64,000 nucleotides of DNA, from NCBI RefSeq assembly GCF_029962835.1, contig NC_080578.1:105131759-105195758 (forward strand), read 5' to 3'. The first letter of the stretch is position 1; every line of letters begins with the position of its first letter. The DNA is from Magnolia sinica. Lineage: Eukaryota; Streptophyta; Magnoliopsida; Magnoliales; Magnoliaceae. Shown here one piece after another: positions 1,626 through 54,545 of this stretch. A program made the translations under genes and the position numbers. The notes beneath the pieces were generated by a model. That model saw only the letters and a list, made by a program, of their open reading frames with translations. It made no database searches and had not been told where the DNA came from.

Positions 1626-1630
1626 AAGGT
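1626..1630. repeat. Left target-site duplication AAGGT of the LTR element
   Basis: AAGGT directly precedes the left LTR and recurs at 10603-10607 directly after the right LTR. The exact match fixes both outer ends of the element. Confidence 0.85.
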
Positions 1631-2219
1631 TGTTTCAACAAGAAACTAATGCATTCGATTTGAGATAATTATTTTACTCAATAATAACAAAGAAAGAATG
1701 AAGAGAACAATCACAATATTTTATTTATTCTGAATTCGTTTACATCCTTTATTTCATTTGATTCCAAAGTAAAGTATGTATATGATGCAATACAAATATC
1801 AAATCTTTTAATATTAACTTCTGCAGCATTTCAGATAGCATCATGATCTTCAGTATGGAGATATCGTCGTTGTGCTGGAATAATATTCATCTTGATTAAT
1901 TTCATGCTTCTGAGAAAATACTTTGATTTTTAAACCCAGATTAAGGTCTCTTTCGATCCCTTCAAGATGAATAATCAACACTTGAGCCGACTGTCCACAC
2001 AGTGGACTCATTGTGCGCACGACACTTATTGTACGGATCATGGGTTGTGCGCCCTATCCTTATTGTGCGCCCCACTGGTTGTGCGCCACCGCATTGGTTG
2101 TGCGCCCCACTAGTTGTGCGCTGTACAATGGATACTTCCAGTACCTGAATTCTTCTAAAGCTTGGATCTCTCTACTACTCTGGTATTGCTTGAATCAATG
2201 AACTATGGGGGTAGTGGGG

Positions 2220-2227
2220 TATTTATA
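2220..2227 (-). promoter_or_regulatory. LTR TATA box, left copy
   Basis: On the minus strand the sequence reads TATAAATA followed by CCCC. It sits between the palindromic U3 array and the predicted R region, where an LTR core promoter belongs, and is conserved in the other LTR. Confidence 0.5.
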
Positions 2228-2280
2228 GGCCTTCACACGTGTGAGCCCTCCACAAAACCGGTTGTGCACTAACACCCTTT

Positions 2281-2461
2281 TTGTGCCGCACAACACAACT
2301 TCTGTTTGTGCACTGCACAATGATACTTATGTTGTGCATCGCACAACAATACTTCTGAGGCAACTTCCGTTGTGCGCCGTGCAACGCAATTTCCAAGGTA
2401 GCTTCTGTTGTGCGCTGCACAACCAAACTTCTACAGCTGCTCCCGTTGTGCACCGCACAAC
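2281..2461. repeat. Palindromic minisatellite in U3 of the left LTR
   Basis: Six imperfect palindromes of the form GTTGTGCGC-GCACAAC start near 2281, 2306, 2331, 2369, 2407 and 2445. The first spacings are about 25 bp and the last three are 38 bp, with ACTTCT-type spacer words. The array lies upstream of the LTR TATA box on the transcribed strand, so it could act as a repeated binding site or form hairpins. The repeat is plain in the sequence; a regulatory role is inference. Confidence 0.75.
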
Positions 2462-2533
2462 CAAATGTTGTAGCTTTTATGTCTTCTCCAGAATTTCTCC
2501 TATCTTCTTCTGATTGATTTTTATACCTCAACA

Positions 2534-2553
2534 GATGTCCCCTTGATCCTTAT
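2534..2553 (-). other. Probable polypurine tract
   Basis: Directly inside the left LTR the minus strand is purine-rich (AAGGATCAAGGGGACATC, then the LTR start TGTTGAGG). It is in the right place for plus-strand priming in an element that reads leftward, though it is not a pure purine run. Confidence 0.45.
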
Positions 2554-2616
2554 TTTTTATTTTCTTTCTTCAAGATGAAATGGAGGATCAATCGAATTTT
2601 TTTCTTCATTTCAATC

Positions 2617-2850
2617 TTTGCGCACAACCACTGCTCGTTGTGCGGTCGGGTCCGCACAACAGACCTGAATCCAAAACATTATATAAGCTGGACTCATATT
2701 CATTTCTCTCATTCGGAATCTCCATCCGAACTCTAATGCGCGCCAACCCTGTTCCGCACAACGTGTTCCTGCGCACAATACTTTCCAGCGCACAATAGAT
2801 TTTTGCGCACAACGCCTTCAGCGCGCAACACTTACCTGCGCACAACAGAG
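2617..2850. repeat. GCGCACAAC half-site cluster just inside the left LTR
   Basis: Between the LTR and the PMD frame there are at least eight copies of GCGCACAA or CCGCACAA, nearly all in one orientation, including a run from about 2755 to 2845. They match one half of the palindromes in U3. The cluster lies outside the LTR, so the motif has spread beyond it. Confidence 0.6.
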
Positions 2851-2857
2851 TTGCTTC

Positions 2858-5156
2858 TTGCCTGGAAATTTTTCTAAGTACCCGAACTTTGCTAAATTTT
2901 CTTCTTATATTTGCTCTGATAGCCTTCATCCCTTGAGCATGAAATATTTGAAAAGCTCGTCTTCAAGAAAGAAGCAATATGCATCTTCTTCAGGATCTGG
3001 ACAAGTTTTCCAACATACTTGGAATTATGTAGAGATAAATGAGGAAAACTTAGAACTTCATAACCCTTCTGATAACAAAACAACCGTCATTCCTATCCAT
3101 CTGCGGCGTTACTGGTCAATCTTACACAGTGAACCATTTGATCGATGAAATATCCTTGTTTCCGTGGATAATTGGATCTTAAATGAACCAAGAATTCTGA
3201 CAGGATATCTGAAAGAGAATGGACCCCGCCAAAGAGCTGGTAGGATTCATAAAATGAGATTTTTACGTCCATACTATGATCCTCAACAACCTTTCCCTGC
3301 CCATTATTTCGAAACTGCTCGGCAACTCTTCTTTTCTGAAAGATTACCCTAGAATACAGAAAAAATCCTAACAATAGGTCTTCTGTCTCTTCTCAATTTC
3401 TACAGTGCTTGGGCTCGAGCCGTCGCTCGAAAACACAACGTCATTCTGGAGTAGATTAAACTCTTCGATGCAATTATAGCTACGTCAGAACATTTGCACG
3501 CGAATGCGGCTATCTTTAGAGGCTTTCTCAATCATTGGTCTTTAATTACTAACTCATTCCATCTTCCCTCGGGTGAAATGAGTATTACCTTATGAGATCT
3601 TCTTTGCATAGTAGGTCTTCCCATCATGGGTAATATTTTTGATGCATATATACCTTTTAATGGAGAATTCGTTCTAGCTTCTGCAAAGGACAACAAATTT
3701 GGGATTTCAAAGACCACGCTTGAACTTTTCAACGCGCTGGCCAATTTTCCTCAACCTGATCACATTACATCTCTGGAATGGCTAGCTCATTTTTCTCAAA
3801 AGCTACAGTACACTTTCTTCTTCCTGCCCTCTATTTCCAAAATTTCGATCTTGTATGGTCTTGCTTTAATAATTGTATCTTTGCCTTGACAGATTTGCAG
3901 GCCATAACCATCAAAAACTCAAGACCATTCGCAAGAACATTAAGAATACCACTGAATATAGTTCTTCCTACGAACTAGCCGCTTTTCTAGCTTACTGATT
4001 AAGCTTGGTAATATTTCTAGATTCTGAACCGACAGATAGCATCAGGCCATCTCTCTTTGTAGTCGCGGGTGCAATGGCGAAATGTCAAAAATATTTGCTA
4101 GCTCCTCCGGTTCTGTGCTCCTTGTATCGCGCTTTTAGAGATGTCGTCTCTGGTTCTAAAGATTCTTCCTCTGAATCTTTTCCTGTTTGTGCTCCGTGAC
4201 ACTTCTTCATAGGCTGGCTAGGAGTGTACTTCCCCTGTACATTTGCTGAGTCTAGAAGAGCATATTCGAACCCTGATCGTCTTCCTCTTCAACATTTTCA
4301 ACTAAGAAAGATGATTGAAAAGTCGAATGGTTGGGTCACTAGAAAGATAGAAAGCAATGATCCTATCGACTTTCATCAATTTTCATTTATTAGCTCTCCC
4401 GAAGACATAACAGTTATTGATGATGATTCCATCTCATTTGGCAAACATTCATTTCTTATCTCCATCAAGTCTAGTACTCTTCCTTTAAGGGAAGGTAGTG
4501 TATTCTGGCATGAACCGTACTATCCAAGTAGATTTGCTCGCCAGTTTGGATTTGATCAAACTGTACCGGAGACTTGTGATATCGTCACTAGGGCAATGAG
4601 AAGTTACGGCATCGGGTCATATAACTAGGCTTTGATATGGAAGCAGCTTTTGAATGTTCATAACAGATCGCATTTTATAATTCCTGGCTATAATTATCCA
4701 CTTAGCACCTCTTATTGCTGGATGCGGTGGTGGGTTCATCAGTATTACTTAGTGGTCAATTGTTACCCAATAGATCATGCTATATGAATTCTTCCTTCTC
4801 ACCTAAAAGATTATCAGAAAGACCAACGCATTGGCTACTTTGAAGAAACCGATCGTGCCCCCTCTCCAGGCCAACTTTGCATAAAAATTTCTTCTGCAAA
4901 TAATATTTCTAAAACAAGGCCTGTTGATACTCTTGAGGGATGGATAACCTTTAGTACTCCTTTGAGGAATACACATGAATATCCTCCAGAGAATGATGAT
5001 TCTTTGCAATTCTATTCTCCTCCGCCCTTGCAGATATTATGAGATAACTTTCCTTTACTATCAGAAAGGCGAGAAACAAAAAGGCATCATCATCCTCTCC
5101 AGAAAGATAAACATATTATAATTAAAGATTCGTCTTCTTTAGAAAGATAAACATAT
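2858..5156 (+). pseudogene. Plant mobile domain (aminotransferase-like PMD) pseudogene, antisense inside the LTR element
   Basis: A long decayed coding frame runs on the plus strand, opposite to gag. From 2858 to about 3888 a single frame can be followed through in-frame stops at about 3146, 3350, 3452 and 3593. A frame change follows between 3889 and 4005, then the frame continues to about 4628 and, with more stops, to about 5156. Recognisable PMD-like stretches are FHLPSGEMSITL followed after a stop by DLLCIVGLPIMG (3560-3625), and LAAFLAY (near 3976). PMD proteins (PF10536; MAIN/MAIL1 relatives in plants) occur both as host genes and inside transposons. Position between the gag side and the 3' LTR, in reverse orientation, matches extra antisense ORFs reported for Tat-lineage elements. 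Several stops mean no intact product. The domain call is from motif memory, not a search. Confidence 0.68.
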
Positions 5157-6840
5157 CATCATTGAAGGCCCATAATTGATCTTGGAGCATTTAGACTTTA
5201 GAGTAAAAAGTAACAAACATTTTGATCAAACTTGATATTGTTGTAATCTAAACCTATTTCAGAAGAATTGTATTTTGTATGTTTGTTTAATCTAAACATG
5301 AGATTTTTCATGATTTATTTCATCATATCAGGCAACTGCACAATTGAGCATATTTTAAATAGAACAATCGAACATATGCATTCACAATATTAATGTATTT
5401 TGTAGCATTTTGATGCTACGCATAGTTTAAACTCGAGCTAGTATACTTTTGACTGGACATGTCACACGACTTGACTTGACTAGACTTTACTAGACTTAAC
5501 TAGACTTGACTGGACTTTTTCACACAGTTTTTAAGCTCATGAGTAGTGGAGCTAGCACAATTTTTTAGACTCATGTTGGAGTCGGGTCTTACACGAATGG
5601 TCATTGTAACTCTTATGAGTTCGTTGGACTTATCGCGGCCGGGGAGTTTACAAACCGCGATCCATCAGAGGGGCTCAGTGAAGCTACCGGGGCCGTGAAC
5701 TCGGTGGGATTTACGCACAGGGTTGGATGCGGTAACTTTCTAGAGTTCATAGGGCACGCAAGACTACCTTAGGGTACTAAATCCAAGGTCGTCAGTCCAT
5801 CAATGAGGAGGATAAAAACTCATCCTCATAAGTTACTACTGAAATCAAACCAGGGATCTGGGAGGTCTTACGCATGGTTGGCCTATTTATGGACGAACCA
5901 AAGAGCGCACACTGCAGCCCGCTTTTTCTTCGCCTGTAAGGTCGGACCTATTCATGGGAGGGCATTTTCTCTCACCTTCCCCTATAACACTGTCGGAAGC
6001 TATACATGCGGCATTGGTCTCACGCGTGACTGGTCGTTGTGGACTTTTTAGTCGATTAGGGCTTTTAGTCGTTGGCTCCATCCGCTACCCACATGGGTGC
6101 ATGTGATGGCCTATACGGGTTTTTTTTAAGGATCACTGGCTTCTCACTGCTGCCTGCATAATTATATATATTGCCGATAATGGTAGGTCTTATGCGTAGT
6201 TGCCCATATAGTCTTGGCTATGCCGTAAATGATAAACCGCTATTACTAATGATTTATTTATATATGGTTAACCGTATAAGCTTGTTCTACTGCCATGAAT
6301 GATGAATCAATAATTGATATATCGTCATTGCTGATAATGTTTTGATAATGTTCATAGTGCATCAGCTTGGCGATGATAACAATTTCGATAGGATGACTCT
6401 TGTGTCAGCGATTAATGACGACAAAGACAATTGCTAATTTGGCAATAATCATTGGTGCTTGACAATAATTGATGATAATATCATTTTTGATGTACTTGAT
6501 TTTGACATGCTTGATATGCTTGAGAATTTTCTTTTACTTGAGAATTCGTTTTTTTATTCATTTATACGGAGAAGAATACATGGCTTTGCCTTTTAAAGTT
6601 ATTTAATGTTTCTACTTATCTTACCCCCTTTTGATTAGGAAGTATTGTGCTGATAATCTTCGTAATTAAAAATCACAATGACCCTCAGAGATAATACATC
6701 TTGATGCTGCGAATTTTGACAAATATATTGATGCCTCATCATCGCATACGAATTATCTGAGATTAGAATTGTCCCCAGTTTCGAATCAATCAGGCTTGTG
6801 TACTCTTATTTCCCCTCTTATATCGTACACTTTTCTTATG
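5157..6840. other. LTR-element interior without recognisable coding sequence
   Basis: No protein domain is visible in this 1.7-kb stretch between the PMD frame and the partial gag. From 5465 to 5520 there are short near-repeats of ACTTGACTAGACTT. Open frames around 5803-6081 lie on both strands and show no family resemblance. The pol genes expected in an autonomous gypsy element would be on this side of gag but are not seen. Confidence 0.55.
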
Positions 6841-7500
6841 ATTATTTCGCTACTATCAATCATTTTCTGTAATATATTCTTTAGATTGAAGCAATTCTCA
6901 GTTCGATGTCCGAGGAAACGATGATAATAATAATAGTCACTTTCACTTATTTTCTTTATCTCCTTTGGATGCTTTGGTCATGGCAATTTGATCTTCTCTA
7001 CTGCCAACAATTTGCTTAGCATAGGAAGTATATTAACTTCTTCAAACGAATACTTTCCATAATCCTTCGGCTGTCCGAATTCTTTTAAAAAAAATAAATA
7101 AATTCTTGGCTGTATGTTTATTCGTCTCTTCTATTAGATTTCTTTTATTCACCTTGTTGATTCTTCGTCTTTCTTTCTTCTTCCGTGATACTGATTGAAG
7201 TTCTTTTAAGATTTCAAAATATCCCATTTTTACAAGACTATTTTTACAGTGATCTTTTCTATATGGCTAGCCTTTTTTATTAGATCTTGAAAGGTGTGTA
7301 TATTCAAATCAATAAGACTCAATGCAATATTTGGTCTTATGCATCCTATGCATAGCTTGATTCGTTCTCTTTTTTATTTCACCAACCATAAACTTGGTGC
7401 CCCCAAGATTCTCCATCGACTAATGAATTCTTTGACCGGTTCATCTTCTCTTTGGTGAATAGAAGTTAAGTCATTACTGACTTCTTCAGAAGATGATCCA
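6840..7500 (-). pseudogene. Partial second gag copy (C-terminal half)
   Basis: On the minus strand, 7500 down to 7250 encodes a stretch with DEPVKEFISRWRILGAPS and later NIHTFQDLIKKA. After a gap, 6940 down to 6840 encodes YYYYHRFLGHRTENCF and LKNILQKMI. Each block is homologous to a block of the main gag upstream (DRWKTLGAS and NIKTFQDL around 8110-8260; YCRYHRYVGHPTKNCF around 7690-7770), in the same order. It is therefore a partial duplication of the gag C-terminal half within the same element. Stops and length changes interrupt it. It could also be a remnant of a related element inserted here. Confidence 0.6.
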
Positions 7501-7505
7501 ACAAA

Positions 7506-8928
7506 TCACGAATTGTAACGAGAGTTTATGATGGAATCTATCGCAGGTGGCCATTCTCTTGTCACAACAGTCTTCCCTTTATCTTTCAAGATTTTCAACG
7601 GATCTCTTGAAAATGTTGCGTTCACAGTCACTTTTTTGTCTCGCTTTTGATTCTTTTTCATTACTATCTCTCCTTGTTTTATCATCCTTTGCAACATATC
7701 CTTTAGTGTAAAGCAATTTTTCGTCGGATGCCCGACATAACGATGATAACGGCAATATCTCTTATCCTTAGTCATTTCACAACTTTCTATGGACGCCTAG
7801 GCTGAGGTAATTGAATAGTCCAAGCAGCTAATAATTATTTCATCATTGGTATAACATCTTCTTTTTCAAAATCATATTCTTTATGATAGTCATATGATCG
7901 AGTTCGCTTATCATTTACTCGATCTTTATACCAATCTAAATCTTCTCTCTTCCCTGTTTCTCGCTTATTGTAAAAAGTATTCATTTTCTTTTCTTGATTA
8001 ACAGTATTTACCATTAATCTATTCGATCTTCTTCTTTCTGATCTAATCTGAAATGCTGACATCTTCTTGTCCATCAATTCCAATGCATGCGCTTTCGTTC
8101 AGAGATCTTGAAAAGTCTTTATATTAGCACTTGTGAGCCGGAAGGTAATTCCCGACTCCATAGAATTCAAACACATGTTTACTTGTTCTTTCTCTTCTGG
8201 CAACTGTCTGCATGAAGCCCCCAAAGTCTTCCACCTGTCGATGACCACGGGTTCATTTTCTCTGTCAGACAAAGGCTAATTCTGCAACACTGACGTCACG
8301 TTCTGATGAGAAGAAATTGTATATAAATACGTCTTGCATCTGTTCCCAAGTTCTTATCGACTCTGATGTCAGATTAGAATACCATTGAAACACTTTGCCC
8401 ATCAACGAAGAACCGAACAGCCGTAAACAATATTGTGAAACAGTAGAGAAGTTTCCCGTGGTTTTGATGAAGTGTATGAGATGTTCTTCTGGAGACCAAT
8501 CTCCATTAAATTTCTAAAAGTCTGGTTGTTTGAAGTTTGCGGGGAATGGAACGTCTTCTACCTCTCTTGGATACGGTGTTTAGTATTGAAACCTCCCAGT
8601 ATGTTCACACTCTTTGACAACTTTTGCAATCATTTGTCGCATTTCCTCTAGCAACCGGAGCAGACCCATGTGATCCTACCCTATGTGGCAATGAACCATC
8701 GGGTTGTTGTTCTTGTTCATTCATAGCAGCCATTACTGGCGGGGCTGTCGCTTGAGCCACGTTATGAGCATGAGTAGCCAAAGCTTCTTAGAGGCTTCTA
8801 CACTCCTCCATTAAGATTCTTTGAGCTTCGACCATCTCAGCCATATGTTCATCAACAATTGGCGGGGGACCTTGACTGATTCTTGCCATATGTACAGCAG
8901 CTTCTTTGCTCCGTGATGAAGCCGTCAT
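7506..8928 (-). pseudogene. gag: gag pseudogene of the gypsy-type LTR element
   Basis: Gag forms the virus-like particle of the retrotransposon and packages its RNA. A start at 8928 (MTASSRSKEAAVHMARIS) opens a frame that is broken by several stops. The central retrotransposon-gag domain is clear at about 8560-8290: GDWSPEEHLIHFIKTTGN, CLRLFGSSLMGKVFQWYSN and ESIRTWEQMQDVF. Near the end (7775-7690) is a zinc-knuckle-like CRYHRYVGHPTKNC block followed by LKDMLQRMIKQGEI, a form common in Tat/Ogre-type gags. The last open piece is 7506-7775. Frame breaks around 8530, 8290 and 8100 leave it non-functional. The family (gypsy gag) is secure; the lineage is inferred. Confidence 0.78.
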
Positions 8929-9663
8929 TGGAGTGAATTGAGAATATAACGATATAGTGAGACTTATCGAAAGAGGAATTTCATTCGATTTTCCTGTACT
9001 TCCATAGCACTCGGTTGATTGAGGTGATTCGGGTACCGGCGAGCTTATCCATAGCGACTTACCTTTCTGTCTCTTTATCTACTCAGTTCTTGCAGCAAGC
9101 AAAGCTAGGAAATCGTGCGCTATTAACAAAGGAATAGATTTCCCGGGGTATATTGCCAGAGGAGTGAGCTCAGGGTTCTTTCCGACTGCGTTTCGTGTCA
9201 CTAGCCCCTTGAATATTTGCGCCAATGGATTCGTCCTGGCAGTCGGGGTGTTTCGGGCTTTTGATCTTTGGTGTGACACGATGATCAAATCTTACTCATC
9301 TTCTTGCGCTAACGGTGAGGTGGTTACGATTGCGACAATGGCTTGAGATTCCATGCGTCTAACTAGTGTAGACTCTTTCTCGCGATGCAAAGTTTGTCTG
9401 CCGGCATATTCTATAACAAACTCAGTCGATGTAAAATAAAAGACGGTCTTGTTCATACTGGCTGCCATTAGTTTGTTGTAGTTTTTCCTTTCCTGTTGTT
9501 GAGAAATAATATAAATCAGTATTTAAGTAAAAACATACTTTACTTTGGAGATGAAAGGGAGGATGTTCTTGTTGAGAGTCGTCATTTTGGTGTTTATATG
9601 ATGCCAAACAGTGGTAAAAAATTTATGTATTGTTCCTAAGTTAATATCAAGTAAAATAGCAAA
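8929..9663. other. Untranslated leader of the LTR element
   Basis: This 735-bp stretch lies between the primer-binding site and the gag start. It has no clear coding sequence; the short open frames at 9079-9346 and 9422-9607 show no domain. A leader of this kind before gag is common in plant gypsy elements. Confidence 0.45.
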
Positions 9664-9681
9664 TCCCCAGTGGAGTCACTA
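9664..9681 (-). other. Primer-binding site of the LTR element
   Basis: Three bases from the right LTR the minus strand reads TAGTGACTCCACTGGGGA. This resembles the TGGCGACTCCGCTGGGGA-type site used by many plant gypsy elements, with the first TGG mutated. It fixes the element orientation as minus. The exact priming tRNA is not assigned. Confidence 0.6.
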
Positions 9682-10251
9682 TTTTGTTTCAATAAGAAAC
9701 AAATGCATTTGATTTGGGATAATTATTTTACTCAATAATAACAAAGGAAGAATGAAGAGGACAATCACAATATTTTATATATTCTGAATTCGTTTACATC
9801 ATTTATCTCATTTGATTCCAAAGTAAAATATTTACATAATGCAATACAAATATCAAATGTTTTAATATTAATTTTTGCAGCATTTTAGATAGCATCATGA
9901 TCTTCAGTATGAAGATGTCGTCGTTGTGCTGGAATAATATTCATCTTGATTGATTCCATGCTTTTGAGAAAATACTTTGATTTTCAAACCCAGATTAGGG
10001 TCTCTTTTGGTCTCTTCAAGATCAATAATCAACACTTGAGTCGACTGTCCACACGGTGGACTCATTGTGCGCACAAGACTGTTGTGCGCACCCATTGTGT
10101 GGATCATGGGTTGCGCGCCCCATCCCTGTTGTGCACCCCATTGGTTGTGTGCCGCATAACGGGTACTTCTAGTACCTGAATTCCTCTAAAGTCTGGTTCT
10201 CTCTGCTACTCTGGTATTGCTCGAATCAATGAACTATGAAGGGTAGTAGGG

Positions 10252-10259
10252 TATTTATA
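10252..10259 (-). promoter_or_regulatory. LTR TATA box, right copy (would drive the element)
   Basis: TATAAATA on the minus strand, same context as the copy at 2220-2227. As part of the 5' LTR this is the promoter expected to transcribe gag. Transcription is not shown; this is a motif call. Confidence 0.5.
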
Positions 10260-10310
10260 GGCCTCCACACGTGTAAGCCCTCTATAAAATCGGTTGTGCG
10301 CTAACACCCT

Positions 10311-10533
10311 TTGTGCGCCACACAACACAACTTCTGTTTATGCACTGCACAACGATACTTATGTTGTGCATGGCACAACAATACTTCTAAGACAACTTCC
10401 ATTGTGCACCACAAAATGCTATTTCCAAGGCAGCTTCTGTTGTGCGCCGCACAACCAAACTTACACAGCCAACTTTTGTTGTGCGCCGCACAACCAAACT
10501 TCCACAGCTGCTCTCGTTGTGCACCGCACAACC
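10311..10533. repeat. Palindromic minisatellite in U3 of the right LTR
   Basis: This is the equivalent of the 2281-2461 array, with about seven units because one 40-bp unit carrying GTTGTGCGCCGCACAAC is duplicated (near 10438 and 10479). Several units have lost symmetry by point changes. Unit number therefore changed after or during insertion. Confidence 0.72.
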
Positions 10534-10805
10534 AAATGTTGTAGCTTTTATGTCTTCTCCAAAATTTCTCCTCTTCTTCTTATTGATTTTTATGCCTCAA
10601 CAAAGGTTCTACACAACCCACTATCTACTAATCAAGCTGGCCACACTGTAGAAAACAATATCTGGTCATATACAAGTGTTGTCCACTCGATGAGTGGATA
10701 TGGTTCATTATTGTATAAGGTGATCCTCATGCACTTCTTGATTTTGAGTCATCCGCTCATTAGGAGAGGAGAATTATTTTTTAAAAGTGGTGCACTGAGG
10801 CTGTA

Positions 10806-24937: not shown

Positions 24938-25611
24938 TAGGGCTGAAAGTTGGGCGGGTTGGTTTGGGTTGATGCTCAACCCTAACCCAACTCAAGGTTC
25001 CTACACCTAAACCTTGACCCAACCAAACCCAATCTTGGGTTGGAAATTCTCAACCCAAGCGCAACCCAAGGGGGCTCGACGAGTTGATTGGATTGGTCGG
25101 GTGTATACGTGCTAATATTTTTGTTATTACATTCGTTTATTATATTTCAATATAGGACTTATTTTTCATATCTATGATTTTATTAATTATATACGTGATT
25201 ATTCATCATAAAGAACATCATTTTTTTCTTTAAAAAAACAAGCTAAAATATAGGACTACTCCTTTAAAAAGTCATGTAGCATAGCACGCAATTTATTTGG
25301 GAGAGAGAAATCTGGCATATCTTGTTAGCTTGAGTCCTTAGAAATGATGTGGACAAATGAGACCCGACATCACTAGTGTACCTTCTACACAGACAATCCA
25401 CACTCAATTATAATTTATAAGTAACTAATATATTGATCGGGTTCGGGTCGGGCAACCTGAGACCTCAACCCAAGCCCAACCTAAGTTTTATCGAGTTGGT
25501 GTTTGTATAGCCCAAACTCAAGATCGGACCCGATATATCATGCTCGAGCCCAACCCAATGTCAGGTCAGTCACGGGTCGGTCGTGTTGAACCCTCCCAAC
25601 TTTCAGCCGTA
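24938..25611. mobile_element. Nested hAT MITE in the left arm
   Basis: Ends TAGGGCTGAAAGTTGGG and its inverted form ending CCCAACTTTCAGCCGTA. The 8-bp flanks CATGAAAT (24930-24937) and CATGAAAT (25612-25619) are identical, as expected for hAT, although the flanking minisatellite also contains this word. The 674-bp interior is rich in CCCAACCC/GGGTTGGG and has no coding sequence. The mirror copy is at 28768-29465. Confidence 0.78.
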
Positions 25612-26010
25612 CATGAAATTGAGCGGGGTAAACTAGAAATTGAGCGAGGCAAATATGAAATTGAGCGGGGCAAATTAGAAATTCAGCGTGGCAAACATGA
25701 AATTGAATGGGGCAAACTAGAAATTGAACGGGGCAAATGAGAAATTTAGCGGGGCAAACATGAAATTGAGCAGGGCAAACATGAAATTGAGCCGGGCAAA
25801 CTAGAAATTCAGCGGGACAAACTAGGAAATCAGCAGGCAAATATGAAATTGAGCGGGGGAAACTAAGAAATCAGCGGGGCAAACATGAAATTGAGCGAGG
25901 GAAACTAGAAAATTAGCGGGGCAAACTAGGAAATCAGCAGGGCAAACTAGAAAATCAACAGGGCAACACATGAAATTAAGCAAGACAAACATGAAATTCA
26001 ATGGGGCAAA
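25612..26010. repeat. 21-bp minisatellite, left arm segment 2
   Basis: About 19 units of the AGCGGGGCAAAC-(ATGAAATTG or TAGAAATTC) repeat, decaying toward the right end. Because 21 is a multiple of three, both strands show open frames with 7-residue repeats such as EIERGKL and CPAQFHV; these are by-products of the repeat. Confidence 0.82.
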
Positions 26011-28235: not shown

Positions 28236-28767
28236 TGTTAAGTTTGCCCAGCTGAATTTCATATTTGCCCCACTGATTTCCTAGTTTGCCCTGTTGATTT
28301 TCTAGTTTTCCCCGCTCAATTTCATGTTTACCCCGCTGATTTTCTAGTTTGCCTCGCTGATTTTCTAGTTTCCCCCGCTCAATTTCATGTTTGCTCCGCT
28401 GATTTTATAGTTTGCCCCGCTGATTTTCTAGTTTTCCCTGCTCAATTTCATGTTTACTCTGCTCAATTTCATATTTGCCCTGCTGAATTTCTAGTTTGCA
28501 TCGCTCAATTTCATGTTTGCCCCGCTCAATTTCTAGTTTGCCTCGCTCAATTTCATGTTTGCCCCGCTAAATTTCTAGTTTGTCCCGCTCAATTTCTAGT
28601 TTGCCCCACTCAATTTCATGTTTAGCCCGCTCAATTTCTCATTTGCCCCGCTCAATTTCTAGTTTGCCCCATTCAATTTCATGTTTGTCACGCTGAATTT
28701 ATAATTTGCCCATCTCAATTTCATATTTGCCCCACTGAATTTCTAGTTTACCTCACTCAATTTCATA
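28236..28767. repeat. 21-bp minisatellite, right arm segment 2 (mirror)
   Basis: The same 21-bp repeat in reverse orientation (GCTCAATTTCATGTTTGCCC), about 25 units. It mirrors the block at 25612-26010 but has a different unit number. Confidence 0.82.
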
Positions 28768-52483: not shown

Positions 52484-54545
52484 TTGTAGGTACTGTCTCA
52501 TTTATCTTGTCACTTTCCTCTTCACCGAGCTCCTCATCAACAAAGTTCTCTTTCCCCCATATCAGACTCAGTCAATCCTGAGTACAAATGAGCGATTCAA
52601 CTGATTCAGGTGTAAGTAAGCTTCTATACTTGCTTACGACCTTACTCTCCGTACTAAAAGCAGATTCCGAAGCCACTGTTGAAATTAGAATCGATAACAT
52701 GTCTCGTGCCATTAACGAGAGCACAGGGTAATGTAAATTACCAGATCTCATCCTCCACTAGTCCAAAACATTAAAATAATTGCCTTTGAATTTTACAACT
52801 AGAAGTTCCTCCTTGAGATAGTTTTGAAGGTCTAATCTAGGCGTCTGTATTTGAATCCCTTTCTGTTGTGCCACGTAAGACATGAAATCATCTACCGTTT
52901 CTTCTTGCGGTTCATCAACTGTAGAACTAGAACCCACATGAGAAAATTGTTCTTTTGCAGCGCTCACATATAAATTGTATAATTCATTGACTGCATCAGA
53001 AATCTTTTCGACCTCAACAACACCCATCGCACCATACAACTTACTACATATGAATTCAACCATAATCATCTTATATCGGGAGATCAAGAAGGACCGTAAC
53101 AGGCATTATCAGACTATACTCATACCAATACTTATCAAATTTTACTTGCATACCCATGGTCATTGAGTGTAAAAAGTCTAGTCCATTACTGCTTTTGCAC
53201 AAGGCATCTTTTACCTTCCAAAGTTAGGCATAAATATATTTGTTGTTGGATACTTATTGTCCGAAAATTTCTTCGTACTGTTGTAAAAAACTAAAAGGAA
53301 CTTACGAACTGATTCAGCTCTTGACCAATCTTCTTCAGAAAGCAACCAAACATACGCACTATCACGCTCAACATAGTGAGAGAATGCAGGTCTCAAATCT
53401 ATCGCTGAATCTAACATTTCAAAAGTTGAATTCCAACGTGTCGTGATATCCAACTTCATCGTTCTCTGAGTTGACAAATTCAACAGCTTCACAATCTCAT
53501 TCCATGTATGTAATTGTGAAGGTGACCCCCTTACGTACTTCACATTCTCTCTTATGTTCTCGATCATGGGATCAATTGTTTTAAGGTCATCTTGTATAAT
53601 CAAGTTTAGGATGTTGATACAACACCTAATATGAAATATTTTTCCACCAAAATACAGGTCACCGGTGGCCCTAAACTGGCTGTACAAATTCGCTATCACG
53701 CTATCATTTGCAGAAGCATTGTCTAGAGTTATTGTAGAGATCTTCTTCTTAATTCCCCACTCTATAAGACATTTGTATATGCAGTCCGAAATCATCAAAC
53801 CGCTATAGGGAGGCGCAAGATAACAAAAGTTTATTATTCTCTTGCAAAGTCTCCATTCGGCATCAACGTAGTGAGTAATTAGTGATATATACCCCTTTCG
53901 TTGATTGGATGTCGTCTACAAATCTAATGTTAGGCTAATTCGGAAAATCGTTTCCAACTCTCCTTTCAACTTGACCTTCTCGCTTTCATACATCTTCATA
54001 CACACCTTCTTTATTGTTGTACGAGAGACATTCTCGTATCTGGGCTTAAGGCATCTGGCTAGTTCAACAAAAATAGGACTCTCTACCATCTAAAATGGTC
54101 TTTCATCAGTAATAATTAACTTGGCCGTCAACTCATTCACAGCTCTTTGTTATACTTGTAGATGGACACCGACGGACCCACTACAAATTGCGTAAATGAA
54201 AGTGTTTGTTGCCCTACCGCACTTCTCACTTTTTTTATATGAAATATGTTTCTTCAAAGTTGTGGTCGAATCATCTGATTGCTTAGTATACTAAGTCTTG
54301 CAGTACTTGCATTATATCTTCACGGTGCCGTTCTTCAGGATTACTTCTTCAAAATTGTCTCACACTACCGATCTCTTTTTTATTTTTTCCACAATATATG
54401 ATTGTGTAGTACTAGTATTAACGATGGACACTTCTTCATGTTCAAGACCTAATCCTTCATCTTCAAGGATTATCGGTGATGTAATTGATCGACCGTCCGG
54501 GGTATTGGAAAAACCCTCACTTTTCATCTGATAGTTGAAATACAC
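52484..54545 (-). pseudogene. hAT transposase pseudogene (Ac/RICESLEEPER-like)
   Basis: The product would cut and paste the element by binding its ends. Order along the minus strand: acidic N-terminus (54545, EDEGLGLEHEEVS); BED finger remnant near 54340-54240 (CKYC ... KKHISYKKSEKC); core with ISTITLDNASANDSVIANL and LDITTRWNSTFEML (53750-53380); C-terminal dimerisation block YPVLSLMARDMLSILIST followed by VASESAFSTESKV and KYRSLLTPESVESLICTQD (52710-52570). Open stretches at 53211-53798 and 52758-53087 are in neighbouring frames. Stops near 54360, 54240, 54090, 53920, 53210, 52757 and 52575 and frame changes show loss of function. Family assignment is secure from the dimerisation block; the closest subfamily is inferred. 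Confidence 0.82.

What the first reader, a model, noticed from the sequence alone, without database searches (positions are those of the whole stretch)
2858..5156. Plant-mobile-domain reading frame carried antisense in a non-autonomous gypsy element
The plus strand of an LTR element whose gag is on the minus strand holds a long, decayed PMD-like frame. PMD proteins link transposons with host silencing and genome-stability factors (MAIN/MAIL1). Antisense extra ORFs are known in some Tat-lineage elements. Here the frame sits in an element with no visible pol. About four in-frame stops in roughly 1 kb with no frameshift suggest it stayed open until fairly recently relative to gag decay.
Basis: partly seen in the sequence, partly recalled or inferred. 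Interest (0 to 1): 0.7.

Follow-up and report, generated by a model that had tools for sequence, protein, structure and literature searches.

The report
Backwards retrotransposon gene with palindrome arrays
A decayed plant retrotransposon carries, on the opposite strand to its other genes, a probably spliced gene of the plant-mobile-domain family that natural selection kept working while the element spread, next to dense arrays of short palindromes that look like docking sites for a regulatory protein, which suggests (unproven) that the element made its own regulator or anti-silencing factor.

Summary
1631-10602 is a complete minus-strand LTR element (LTR divergence K2P 0.106, TSD AAGGT) with gag but no detectable pol. 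Its plus strand carries a plant-mobile-domain (PF10536) gene at about 2939-5150 with nine stops; the frame change at 3808-3892 is best read as an 85-bp GT-AG intron. It is an antisense accessory gene of a Tat-type element: relative L044 has RT, RNase H and a second RNase H on one strand, with PMD on the other. Across 30 copies, variants shared by three or more copies are enriched at third codon positions, singletons are not (N:S 346:350 versus 627:218): selection while copies spread, then decay. Unpredicted: the U3 promoter and antisense leader are packed with palindromes of discrete geometry, TTGTGC-N3-GCACAA here, TTGCGC-N6/N5-GCGCAA in related families. Arms are conserved (88%), spacers not (51%); the N6 form occurs 1,245 times genome-wide against 1 reversed control. 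PMD in Tat elements and antisense ORFs are known; I found the arrays described in none of the open-licence papers searched. Best model: the PMD protein or its complex binds these sites and regulates or de-silences its own family. Binding is inferred, not shown.

The parts
1626..1630 (.). target-site duplication AAGGT (left); right copy at 10603-10607
   Evidence: read directly; printed
1631..2533 (-). 3' LTR of the element (element lies on the minus strand)
   Evidence: LTR pair, 83.4% by BLAST, K2P 0.106
2011..2121 (.). R/U5 part of the motif array: TTGTGC half-sites in 34-bp and 16-bp tandem units (overlapping TRF rows)
2220..2227 (-). TATA box candidate for the sense (gag) transcript, inside the LTR
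   Evidence: sequence; (a minus-strand TATA-like match in 22 of 28 loci with a recognised LTR end; no chance control)
2281..2460 (.). U3 palindrome array: exact TTGTGC-N3-GCACAA at 2306, 2332, 2408, 2446; N1 form at 2281
   Evidence: 12 matches in the window at up to 1 mismatch, 11 of them in the two LTRs, 0.12 expected
2534..2550 (-). polypurine tract next to the 3' LTR
   Evidence: sequence; same position in related loci
2621..2660 (.). motif sites between LTR end and antisense TATA, incl. TTGTGC-N10-GCACAA at 2638
2680..2686 (+). TATA box candidate of the antisense PMD gene, 146 bp from the LTR end
   Evidence: plus-strand TATA-like match in 26 of 28 loci with a recognised LTR end, 23 of the 26 at 113-150 bp (no chance control)
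2755..2847 (+). 17-bp tandem array of GCGCACAA-type half-sites in the 5' leader of the antisense gene
2939..3807 (+). PMD gene exon 1 (ATG at 2939), stops at 3146, 3350, 3452, 3593
3808..3892 (+). 85-bp GT-AG intron (predicted) of the PMD gene
   Evidence: GT 25/30, AG 25/30 copies; phase agrees; shared-variant rate equal to third positions
3893..5150 (+). PMD gene exon 2, stops at 3996, 4197, 4626, 4785, 5040; frame ends at 5148-5150
5530..6199 (-). region shared with the part of L044 that follows its integrase-position frame
   Evidence: 76.5% over 684 columns
6789..7796 (-). partly duplicated gag C-terminal region where pol would be expected
7838..9522 (-). gag (broken by stops and frame changes); PF03732 at 8268-8513
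9664..9681 (-). primer-binding-site-like sequence after the 5' LTR (resembles a tRNA-Arg PBS; recalled, not tested)
9685..10602 (-). 5' LTR with the same palindrome array (exact N3 at 10364, 10440, 10479, 10517)

Best explanation
The window holds an old, decayed copy of a Tat-type (Ogre-like) LTR retrotransposon family that lost pol. It kept gag and an antisense accessory gene with its own TATA promoter, probably one intron, and a plant mobile domain. While the family was spreading, the PMD protein was under selection. The best-supported mechanism is that this protein, probably as a dimer or with a partner, recognises short palindromes clustered in the U3 promoter and around its own promoter, and switches on or de-silences all copies that carry them. 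This would let a pol-less element be transcribed and mobilised by a pol-bearing relative. Shown: anatomy, protein-level selection, discrete palindrome geometry, conserved arms, different motif classes in different families, and a pol-bearing relative with PMD on the opposite strand to pol. Predicted from sequence: intron and promoters. Inferred: that the PMD protein is what binds the palindromes, and that the result is activation or anti-silencing rather than repression.
For: Selection: 30 aligned copies, singletons by codon position 330/300/331, variants in three or more copies 245/188/375 (variants in exactly two copies and columns with under 20 copies left out); N:S 627:218 versus 346:350, Fisher 3e-23; median pairwise dN/dS 0.33 over 435 pairs. 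The intron and third positions show the same shared rate (0.52, 0.53 per column) against 0.35 and 0.26 at positions 1 and 2. Promoter: plus-strand TATA-like match in 26 of 28 loci. Motif: 27 GCACAA in 1,229 bp versus 24 in the 53.4 kb beyond the element; in 30 copies 222 upstream of PMD (44.7 kb), 24 inside it (65.2 kb), 21 downstream (45.0 kb). Exact spacers over 49 regions: TTGCGC arms N6 24, N5 7, other gaps 3; TTGTGC arms N3 22, other gaps 9 (gaps 0-15). Arms 1009/1145 conserved, other LTR and leader bases about 74%, spacers 43/84. Genome-wide N6 sites 1,245 versus 1 reversed control; A-type triple-motif matches 697 (several per cluster) versus 3. Five tandem-repeat rows of different period all contain the motif. 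Precedents: VANC (PMC5735166, passages), the DOWN motif of MAIN/MAIL1-dependent genes (PMC7156037, passages), and the suggestion that TEs use their own PMD proteins against silencing (PMC8616336 and PMC5418596, passages).
Against: No binding data. The structure model failed (pLDDT 34), so no DNA-binding fold was seen. PMD trees do not separate cleanly by motif class: N5 appears in three places and N3 in two, and L023 carries the N3 LTR with a PMD of the sister clade, so co-evolution is suggestive only. 8 of 51 upstream regions (L022, L029, L032, L035, L037, L053, L067, L008) have no relaxed palindrome at N3, N5 or N6; 7 of these 8 also have no recognised LTR end. Upstream LTRs of related loci are partly homologous, so motif sharing is partly descent; unrelated inverted pairs reach 9-10 loci in the same blind scan for that reason. 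Whether motif clusters found without reference to PMD lie beside PMD genes could not be tested. Stop-related variants are as frequent among shared (41 of 737) as among single variants (55 of 900).
Confidence: 0.55

Rival explanations
1. The palindromes are sites for a host transcription factor or chromatin protein that drives the LTR and the antisense promoter; the PMD protein does something else (for example nuclear import or interference with host MAIN/MAIL1).
For: Sites flank both TATA candidates, as promoter elements would. No direct link between PMD and motif is shown.
Against: Spacing and half-site differ between families inside one genome (N3, N5, N6), which is odd for a fixed host factor; presence in tandem units of several different periods resembles element-specific VANC targets.
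Confidence: 0.25
2. The palindromes act as RNA hairpins (packaging, dimerisation or translation control) in the element's transcripts.
For: They can pair as 6-bp stems with 3-6 nt loops (from the sequence; no folding run); arms conserved and spacers variable.
Against: Many single half-sites lie in same-orientation arrays that do not form the hairpin (2755-2847). No clear strand bias of forms tolerating a G-U pair: 9 TTGTGC..GCGCAA versus 13 TTGCGC..GCACAA. Part of the sites lie in U3, upstream of the sense TATA candidate.
Confidence: 0.1
3. The antisense transcript matters, not the protein: it forms double-stranded RNA with the sense transcript, and the PMD frame is a passenger.
For: Antisense transcription of this kind is discussed for plant elements (PMC7264820, parts 1-2 of 3 read).
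Against: Protein-level selection.
Confidence: 0.06
4. The PMD frame is a chance capture of a host gene without function in the element.
For: Plant elements do capture genes; MAIN/MAIL genes are related (established knowledge; PMC5418596, passages).
Against: 44 DNA matches of this gene; PMD next to an LTR end in 28 loci, including families whose PMD is about half identical (window piece 51% to L006); purifying selection.
Confidence: 0.03

Closest known systems
Ogre / Tat-lineage elements with a PMD extra ORF (Neumann et al. 2019, PMC6317226; section 13 and passages read)
   Same: PMD extra ORF (reported in 57% of Ogre elements); second RNase H after the first in the relative L044
   Different: The window copy has no detectable pol; an intron in the PMD gene and palindrome arrays were not mentioned in what I read; RT phylogeny not tested
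Antisense aORF-3R of Grande, RIRE2, Retand (PMC7264820, parts 1-2 of 3; PMC11963269, part 1 of 5 and passages)
   Same: Antisense gene between pol and 3' LTR; own promoter shown for Grande; nuclear role suspected
   Different: Those carry Transposase_28 or SMC-like domains; PF04195 was not hit here. 'PMD' and 'mobile domain' do not occur in the main text of PMC11963269 (term search), which reports Retand only from eudicots and monocots
VANC anti-silencing system of VANDAL elements (Hosaka et al. 2017, PMC5735166, passages)
   Same: Element-encoded protein plus dense short motifs in non-coding parts, associated with tandem repeats and differing between families
   Different: DNA transposon; only PF10536 passed the Pfam cut-off here; VANC21 motifs are arrayed in one orientation, here many are palindromes; binding proven there, not here
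MAIN/MAIL1/PP7L host PMD module (PMC7156037, PMC5418596, passages)
   Same: PMD proteins linked to TE silencing and to a promoter motif
   Different: Host genes, not element genes; I did not compare the DOWN motif letter by letter

Membership tests
Plant mobile domain (PF10536) | match above Pfam gathering score | tested here: met
   42.2 and 62.0 bits with X at stops (cut-off 34.9); single stop-free pieces stay below the cut-off
PMD-A clade (gypsy-encoded PMD, Ikeda 2017) | placement in the PMD-A clade | not tested
   no reference sequences of the clades were compared
LTR retrotransposon | paired LTRs TG..CA, 5-bp TSD, PPT, gag | tested here: met
Ty3/gypsy superfamily | RT and RNase H before integrase | tested here: inconclusive
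   the window element has no pol; in L044 RT and two RNase H frames precede a frame in integrase position that gave only a weak SH3_Tf2-1 hit
Tat lineage (Ogre/Retand) | second RNase H between RNase H and integrase | tested here: inconclusive
   second RNase H found in L044 (PF13456 7.7e-23) before the integrase-position frame (PF24626 E=0.003, below cut-off); no pol in the window element
Tat lineage (Ogre/Retand) | RT phylogeny | not tested
   no reference RT set was used
Ogre | PMD extra ORF | tested here: met
   PMC6317226 gives 57% of Ogre elements, so it is typical, not strictly defining
Ogre | primer-binding site for tRNA-Arg | tested here: inconclusive
   sequence after the 5' LTR looks like it from recall; no tRNA compared
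Retand | antisense Transposase_28 (PF04195) ORF | tested here: not met
   no PF04195 hit at E<=10
VANC-type anti-silencing system | dense short motif arrays in non-coding DNA of the element | tested here: met
VANC-type anti-silencing system | VANC protein family | tested here: not met
   PF10536 was the only Pfam family above its cut-off; no VANC sequence was compared directly
VANC-type anti-silencing system | protein binds the motif and removes DNA methylation | not testable with these tools
   needs binding and methylation data

The most novel reading that the evidence does not exclude
Tat-lineage LTR retrotransposons carry a sequence-specific anti-silencing system of their own: an antisense, spliced PMD protein plus palindromic target arrays in the LTR, with half-site and spacer re-set family by family, evolved independently of VANC. 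Host MAIN/MAIL1 would be the domesticated or ancestral side of the same protein-motif module.
Probability: 0.4. Interest if true: 0.85.

Novelty: new variant of a known kind. Interest (0 to 1): 0.62.

Why it matters
The function of the plant mobile domain is unknown, and it has been suggested in print without a target that elements use PMD proteins against silencing. The palindrome arrays give a concrete, short candidate target with fixed geometry for a direct binding test, and would explain why a PMD gene is kept under selection in elements that have lost pol. If true it would be a second case, besides VANC, of element-encoded, motif-guided self-regulation in plants.

Tried and rejected
Frameshift decay of the frame: I prefer an intron. 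PMD as Transposase_28: no hit. Structure prediction of an open PMD frame from L006 with 11 aligned pieces: failed, pLDDT 34, so no fold search was run. A pol remnant inside the element: none found at E<=1e-3 with L044's pieces. A gag search of the genome (with 30 loci, with 8 loci) did not complete, nor was a PMD protein search. The genome count of TTGTGC-N3-GCACAA was asked, and the N7 spacer control; neither was answered. So no spacer control exists genome-wide; the controls are the tool's reversed pattern and the local spacer histogram. Partial cross-check by eye: of eight PMD places on C1 below 75 Mb, one (C1:56386574) has a listed exact N6 palindrome within 3 kb; the lists are partial and exact arms miss decayed sites, so this says little.

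Full report
WHAT IS THERE. The finding's stretch lies in a complete LTR retrotransposon, 1631-10602, on the minus strand: LTRs 1631-2533 and 9685-10602 (83.4% by BLAST with gaps; K2P 0.106, 72 transitions and 12 transversions in 865 sites), TSD AAGGT on both sides, a polypurine tract at 2534-2550 and gag on the minus strand (PF03732, 4.9e-6). The host genome has 1.84 Gb in 127 contigs; of the contigs seen, those numbered up to C19 are 69-142 Mb and C56 is 0.3 Mb, which would fit Magnoliaceae (inference only). The plus strand at about 2939-5150 encodes a plant mobile domain: 3 of 10 separate pieces hit PF10536, and two exon-length frames with X at stops hit it above the curated cut-off over profile 2-59 and 100-346.

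THE FRAME IS PROBABLY A SPLICED GENE. In 30 aligned copies this interval begins with GT in 25 and ends with AG in 25 and is T-rich (45% versus 31% and 33% in the exons). Removing 3808-3892 (85 bp, not a multiple of three) brings the two frames into phase. Variants shared by three or more copies occur at 0.52 per intron column, as at third codon positions (0.53), against 0.35 and 0.26 at positions 1 and 2, while singletons are even everywhere (0.42-0.48). 0 of 14 indels in the interval are a multiple of three, but this is weak evidence, since only 11 of 59 in exon 1 and 30 of 77 in exon 2 are. L002 and L006 show a GT...AG interval at the same place (sequence), but in both the frame reads through it without a stop, so there it could also be coding. 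An intron in a gene lying antisense to the genomic RNA would not be removed during retrotransposition; this is inference. No transcript was seen.

SELECTION, THEN DECAY. Singletons by codon position are 330/300/331 (uniform, p=0.38); shared variants 245/188/375 (p=1.5e-15; difference p=8e-7). Variants in exactly two copies and columns with fewer than 20 copies were left out. Nonsynonymous to synonymous is 627:218 for singletons and 346:350 for shared variants. Median pairwise dN/dS is 0.33 (435 pairs). Variants private to eight copies of the window's subfamily give 91/72/78 singles and 7/9/20 shared by two or more. Against a simple reading, stop-related variants are not rarer among shared (41 of 737) than single ones (55 of 900). 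Every copy in the alignment has between 3 and 14 stops in the window's codon register, so all 30 are relics.

POL WAS LOST. A second complete copy, L040, matches the window element from LTR to LTR (its own LTRs 88% identical over 813 bp) and only gag pieces of L044 match it, so the layout is not peculiar to the window copy. The relative L044 has, in order on its plus strand, protease (PF13975 E=0.0014, below cut-off), RT (3.1e-26), RNase H (9.5e-25), a second RNase H (PF13456 7.7e-23), then a frame in integrase position with a weak SH3_Tf2-1 hit (E=0.003, below cut-off). PMD is called on the opposite strand just beyond (C15:3864978-3866255, minus; its low end overlaps L044), and L048 on the far side has an LTR end and PPT; the 5' LTR was not seen, so that all this is one element is inferred. 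The two minus-strand pieces of L044 tested alone gave no Pfam hit. L044's gag is 43-52% identical to the window's over the three best pieces and 28% over the duplicated stretch; the part of L044 after the integrase-position frame matches window 5530-6199 at 76.5%; none of its enzyme pieces match the window element. The window's family therefore looks like a pol-deleted derivative of a Tat-type element; where pol should be there is a partial gag duplication.

PALINDROME ARRAYS. The 1,229 bp from 1632 to 2860 contain 27 GCACAA (either strand) against 24 in the 53.4 kb beyond the element, and 15 CGCACAAC against 0. In 30 copies there are 222 GCACAA upstream of PMD in 44.7 kb, 24 inside PMD in 65.2 kb and 21 downstream in 45.0 kb. 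They form palindromes: TTGTGC-N3-GCACAA, 12 with at most one mismatch in the window, 11 of them in the LTRs, 0.12 expected. Five tandem-repeat rows with periods 34, 16, 26, 17 and 39 (the first two overlap, the last is in the other LTR) all contain the motif. Among eight relatives with the same LTR type, half-site bases agree with the window in 1009 of 1145 cases, other LTR and leader bases in about 74%, palindrome spacers in 43 of 84 (sites were chosen because the window has the motif, and alignment in repeats may favour motif on motif). Of the 30 copies, nine have N3 palindromes; of the other 21, fifteen have three or more CpG-decay-tolerant TTGCGC-N6-GCGCAA palindromes, one (L026) has N5 and five have none. 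A blind search for any inverted 6-mer in 51 regions upstream of PMD ranks TTGCGC-N6 first (15 loci, 24 sites), then TTGTGC-N3 (10 loci, 22 sites) and TGTTTC-N5 (10 loci, 10 sites; seen at the LTR terminus); 20 shuffles reach at most 2 loci, but other pairs with about one site per locus reach 9, so homology of the LTRs explains part of the locus counts. What homology does not explain is several sites per locus with one spacer: over 49 regions TTGCGC arms give 24 at N6, 7 at N5 and 3 at other gaps from 0 to 15, and TTGTGC arms 22 at N3 and 9 at other gaps. Of 38 regions with four or more relaxed palindromes, 24 are mainly N6, 10 N3 and 4 N5; in 28 the main spacer makes up at least 70%. Relaxed sites at N3/N5/N6 number 246 in 51 upstream regions against 7 in 35 window tiles. 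Ten further PMD loci, chosen from the upper part for near-complete PMD matches, gave 14, 32, 12, 15, 13, 8, 9, 10, 0 and 10 half-sites in 2.2 kb against a maximum of 5 in 24 background tiles; four more (L065-L068) have 9, 4, 0 and 5 relaxed palindromes. Genome-wide, the exact N6 form occurs 1,245 times against 1 for the reversed pattern, and the three-motif A-type pattern matches 697 times, often several times per cluster, against 3.

PROMOTER LAYOUT. Of 51 upstream regions, 28 had a recognisable LTR end and PPT; 26 of these have a plus-strand TATA-like match within 420 bp, 23 of them 113-150 bp beyond the LTR end, and 22 a minus-strand match before it. The patterns were loose, one minus-strand match (L006) lies only 16 bp from the LTR end, some regions were too short to reach the U3 TATA, and no chance control was run. 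Half-sites lie in U3, between the two TATA candidates and in the leader of the antisense gene.

HOW IT PROBABLY WORKS. The PMD protein is selected, its gene seems to have its own promoter, and it sits next to arrays that look like operator sites whose geometry differs from family to family. The simplest model is self-recognition: the protein or its complex binds the arrays of all family members and raises their transcription or lifts silencing, so pol-less members stay transcribed and are mobilised by pol-bearing relatives. Binding, sign of effect and the partner are inferred.

KNOWN AND NEW. PMD extra ORFs in Ogre (57%) are known (PMC6317226, section 13 read), as are gypsy-only PMD clades (PMC5418596, passages), antisense ORFs near the 3' LTR (PMC7264820, parts 1-2 of 3; PMC11963269, part 1 of 5 and passages) and PMD as the most frequent non-canonical domain of gypsy consensuses (PMC9289625, passages). 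Steinbauerova et al. 2011 was seen only as a citation. The counter-silencing idea is in print (PMC8616336, PMC5418596, passages). I found no report of the palindrome arrays or of a PMD-LTR motif pair in searches; these cover open-licence papers only, and I read only passages or parts of the papers listed. VANC (PMC5735166, passages) is the closest in mode of action.

Noticed in passing
window 6859-6927 and 7681-7749: Part of the gag C-terminal region is duplicated (74% over 69 bp), just where pol is missing; possibly a scar of the pol deletion.
   Followed up: partly
L023: A copy with the N3-type LTR but a PMD gene that groups with copies of another LTR type: looks like recombination between subfamilies.
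   Followed up: no
L056/L046: A PMD family in the other main clade also has TTGTGC with spacer N3 and 32 half-sites: the same half-site and spacer pair may have arisen twice.
   Followed up: partly
L001, L008: PMD loci where no LTR end or PPT was recognised; many of the 120 PMD matches may be of such other kinds.
   Followed up: no
window 52761-53105 minus strand: Weak hAT-like transposase remnant (PF14372, E=0.0076, below cut-off).
   Followed up: no
window 25541-25870 and 28242-28622: Open frames made of repeated CPAQFHV-like units on opposite strands, probably a tandem repeat and not a gene.
   Followed up: no
L039 about 2721-5941: A copy of the element with about 3.2 kb of other DNA in the middle.
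   Followed up: no
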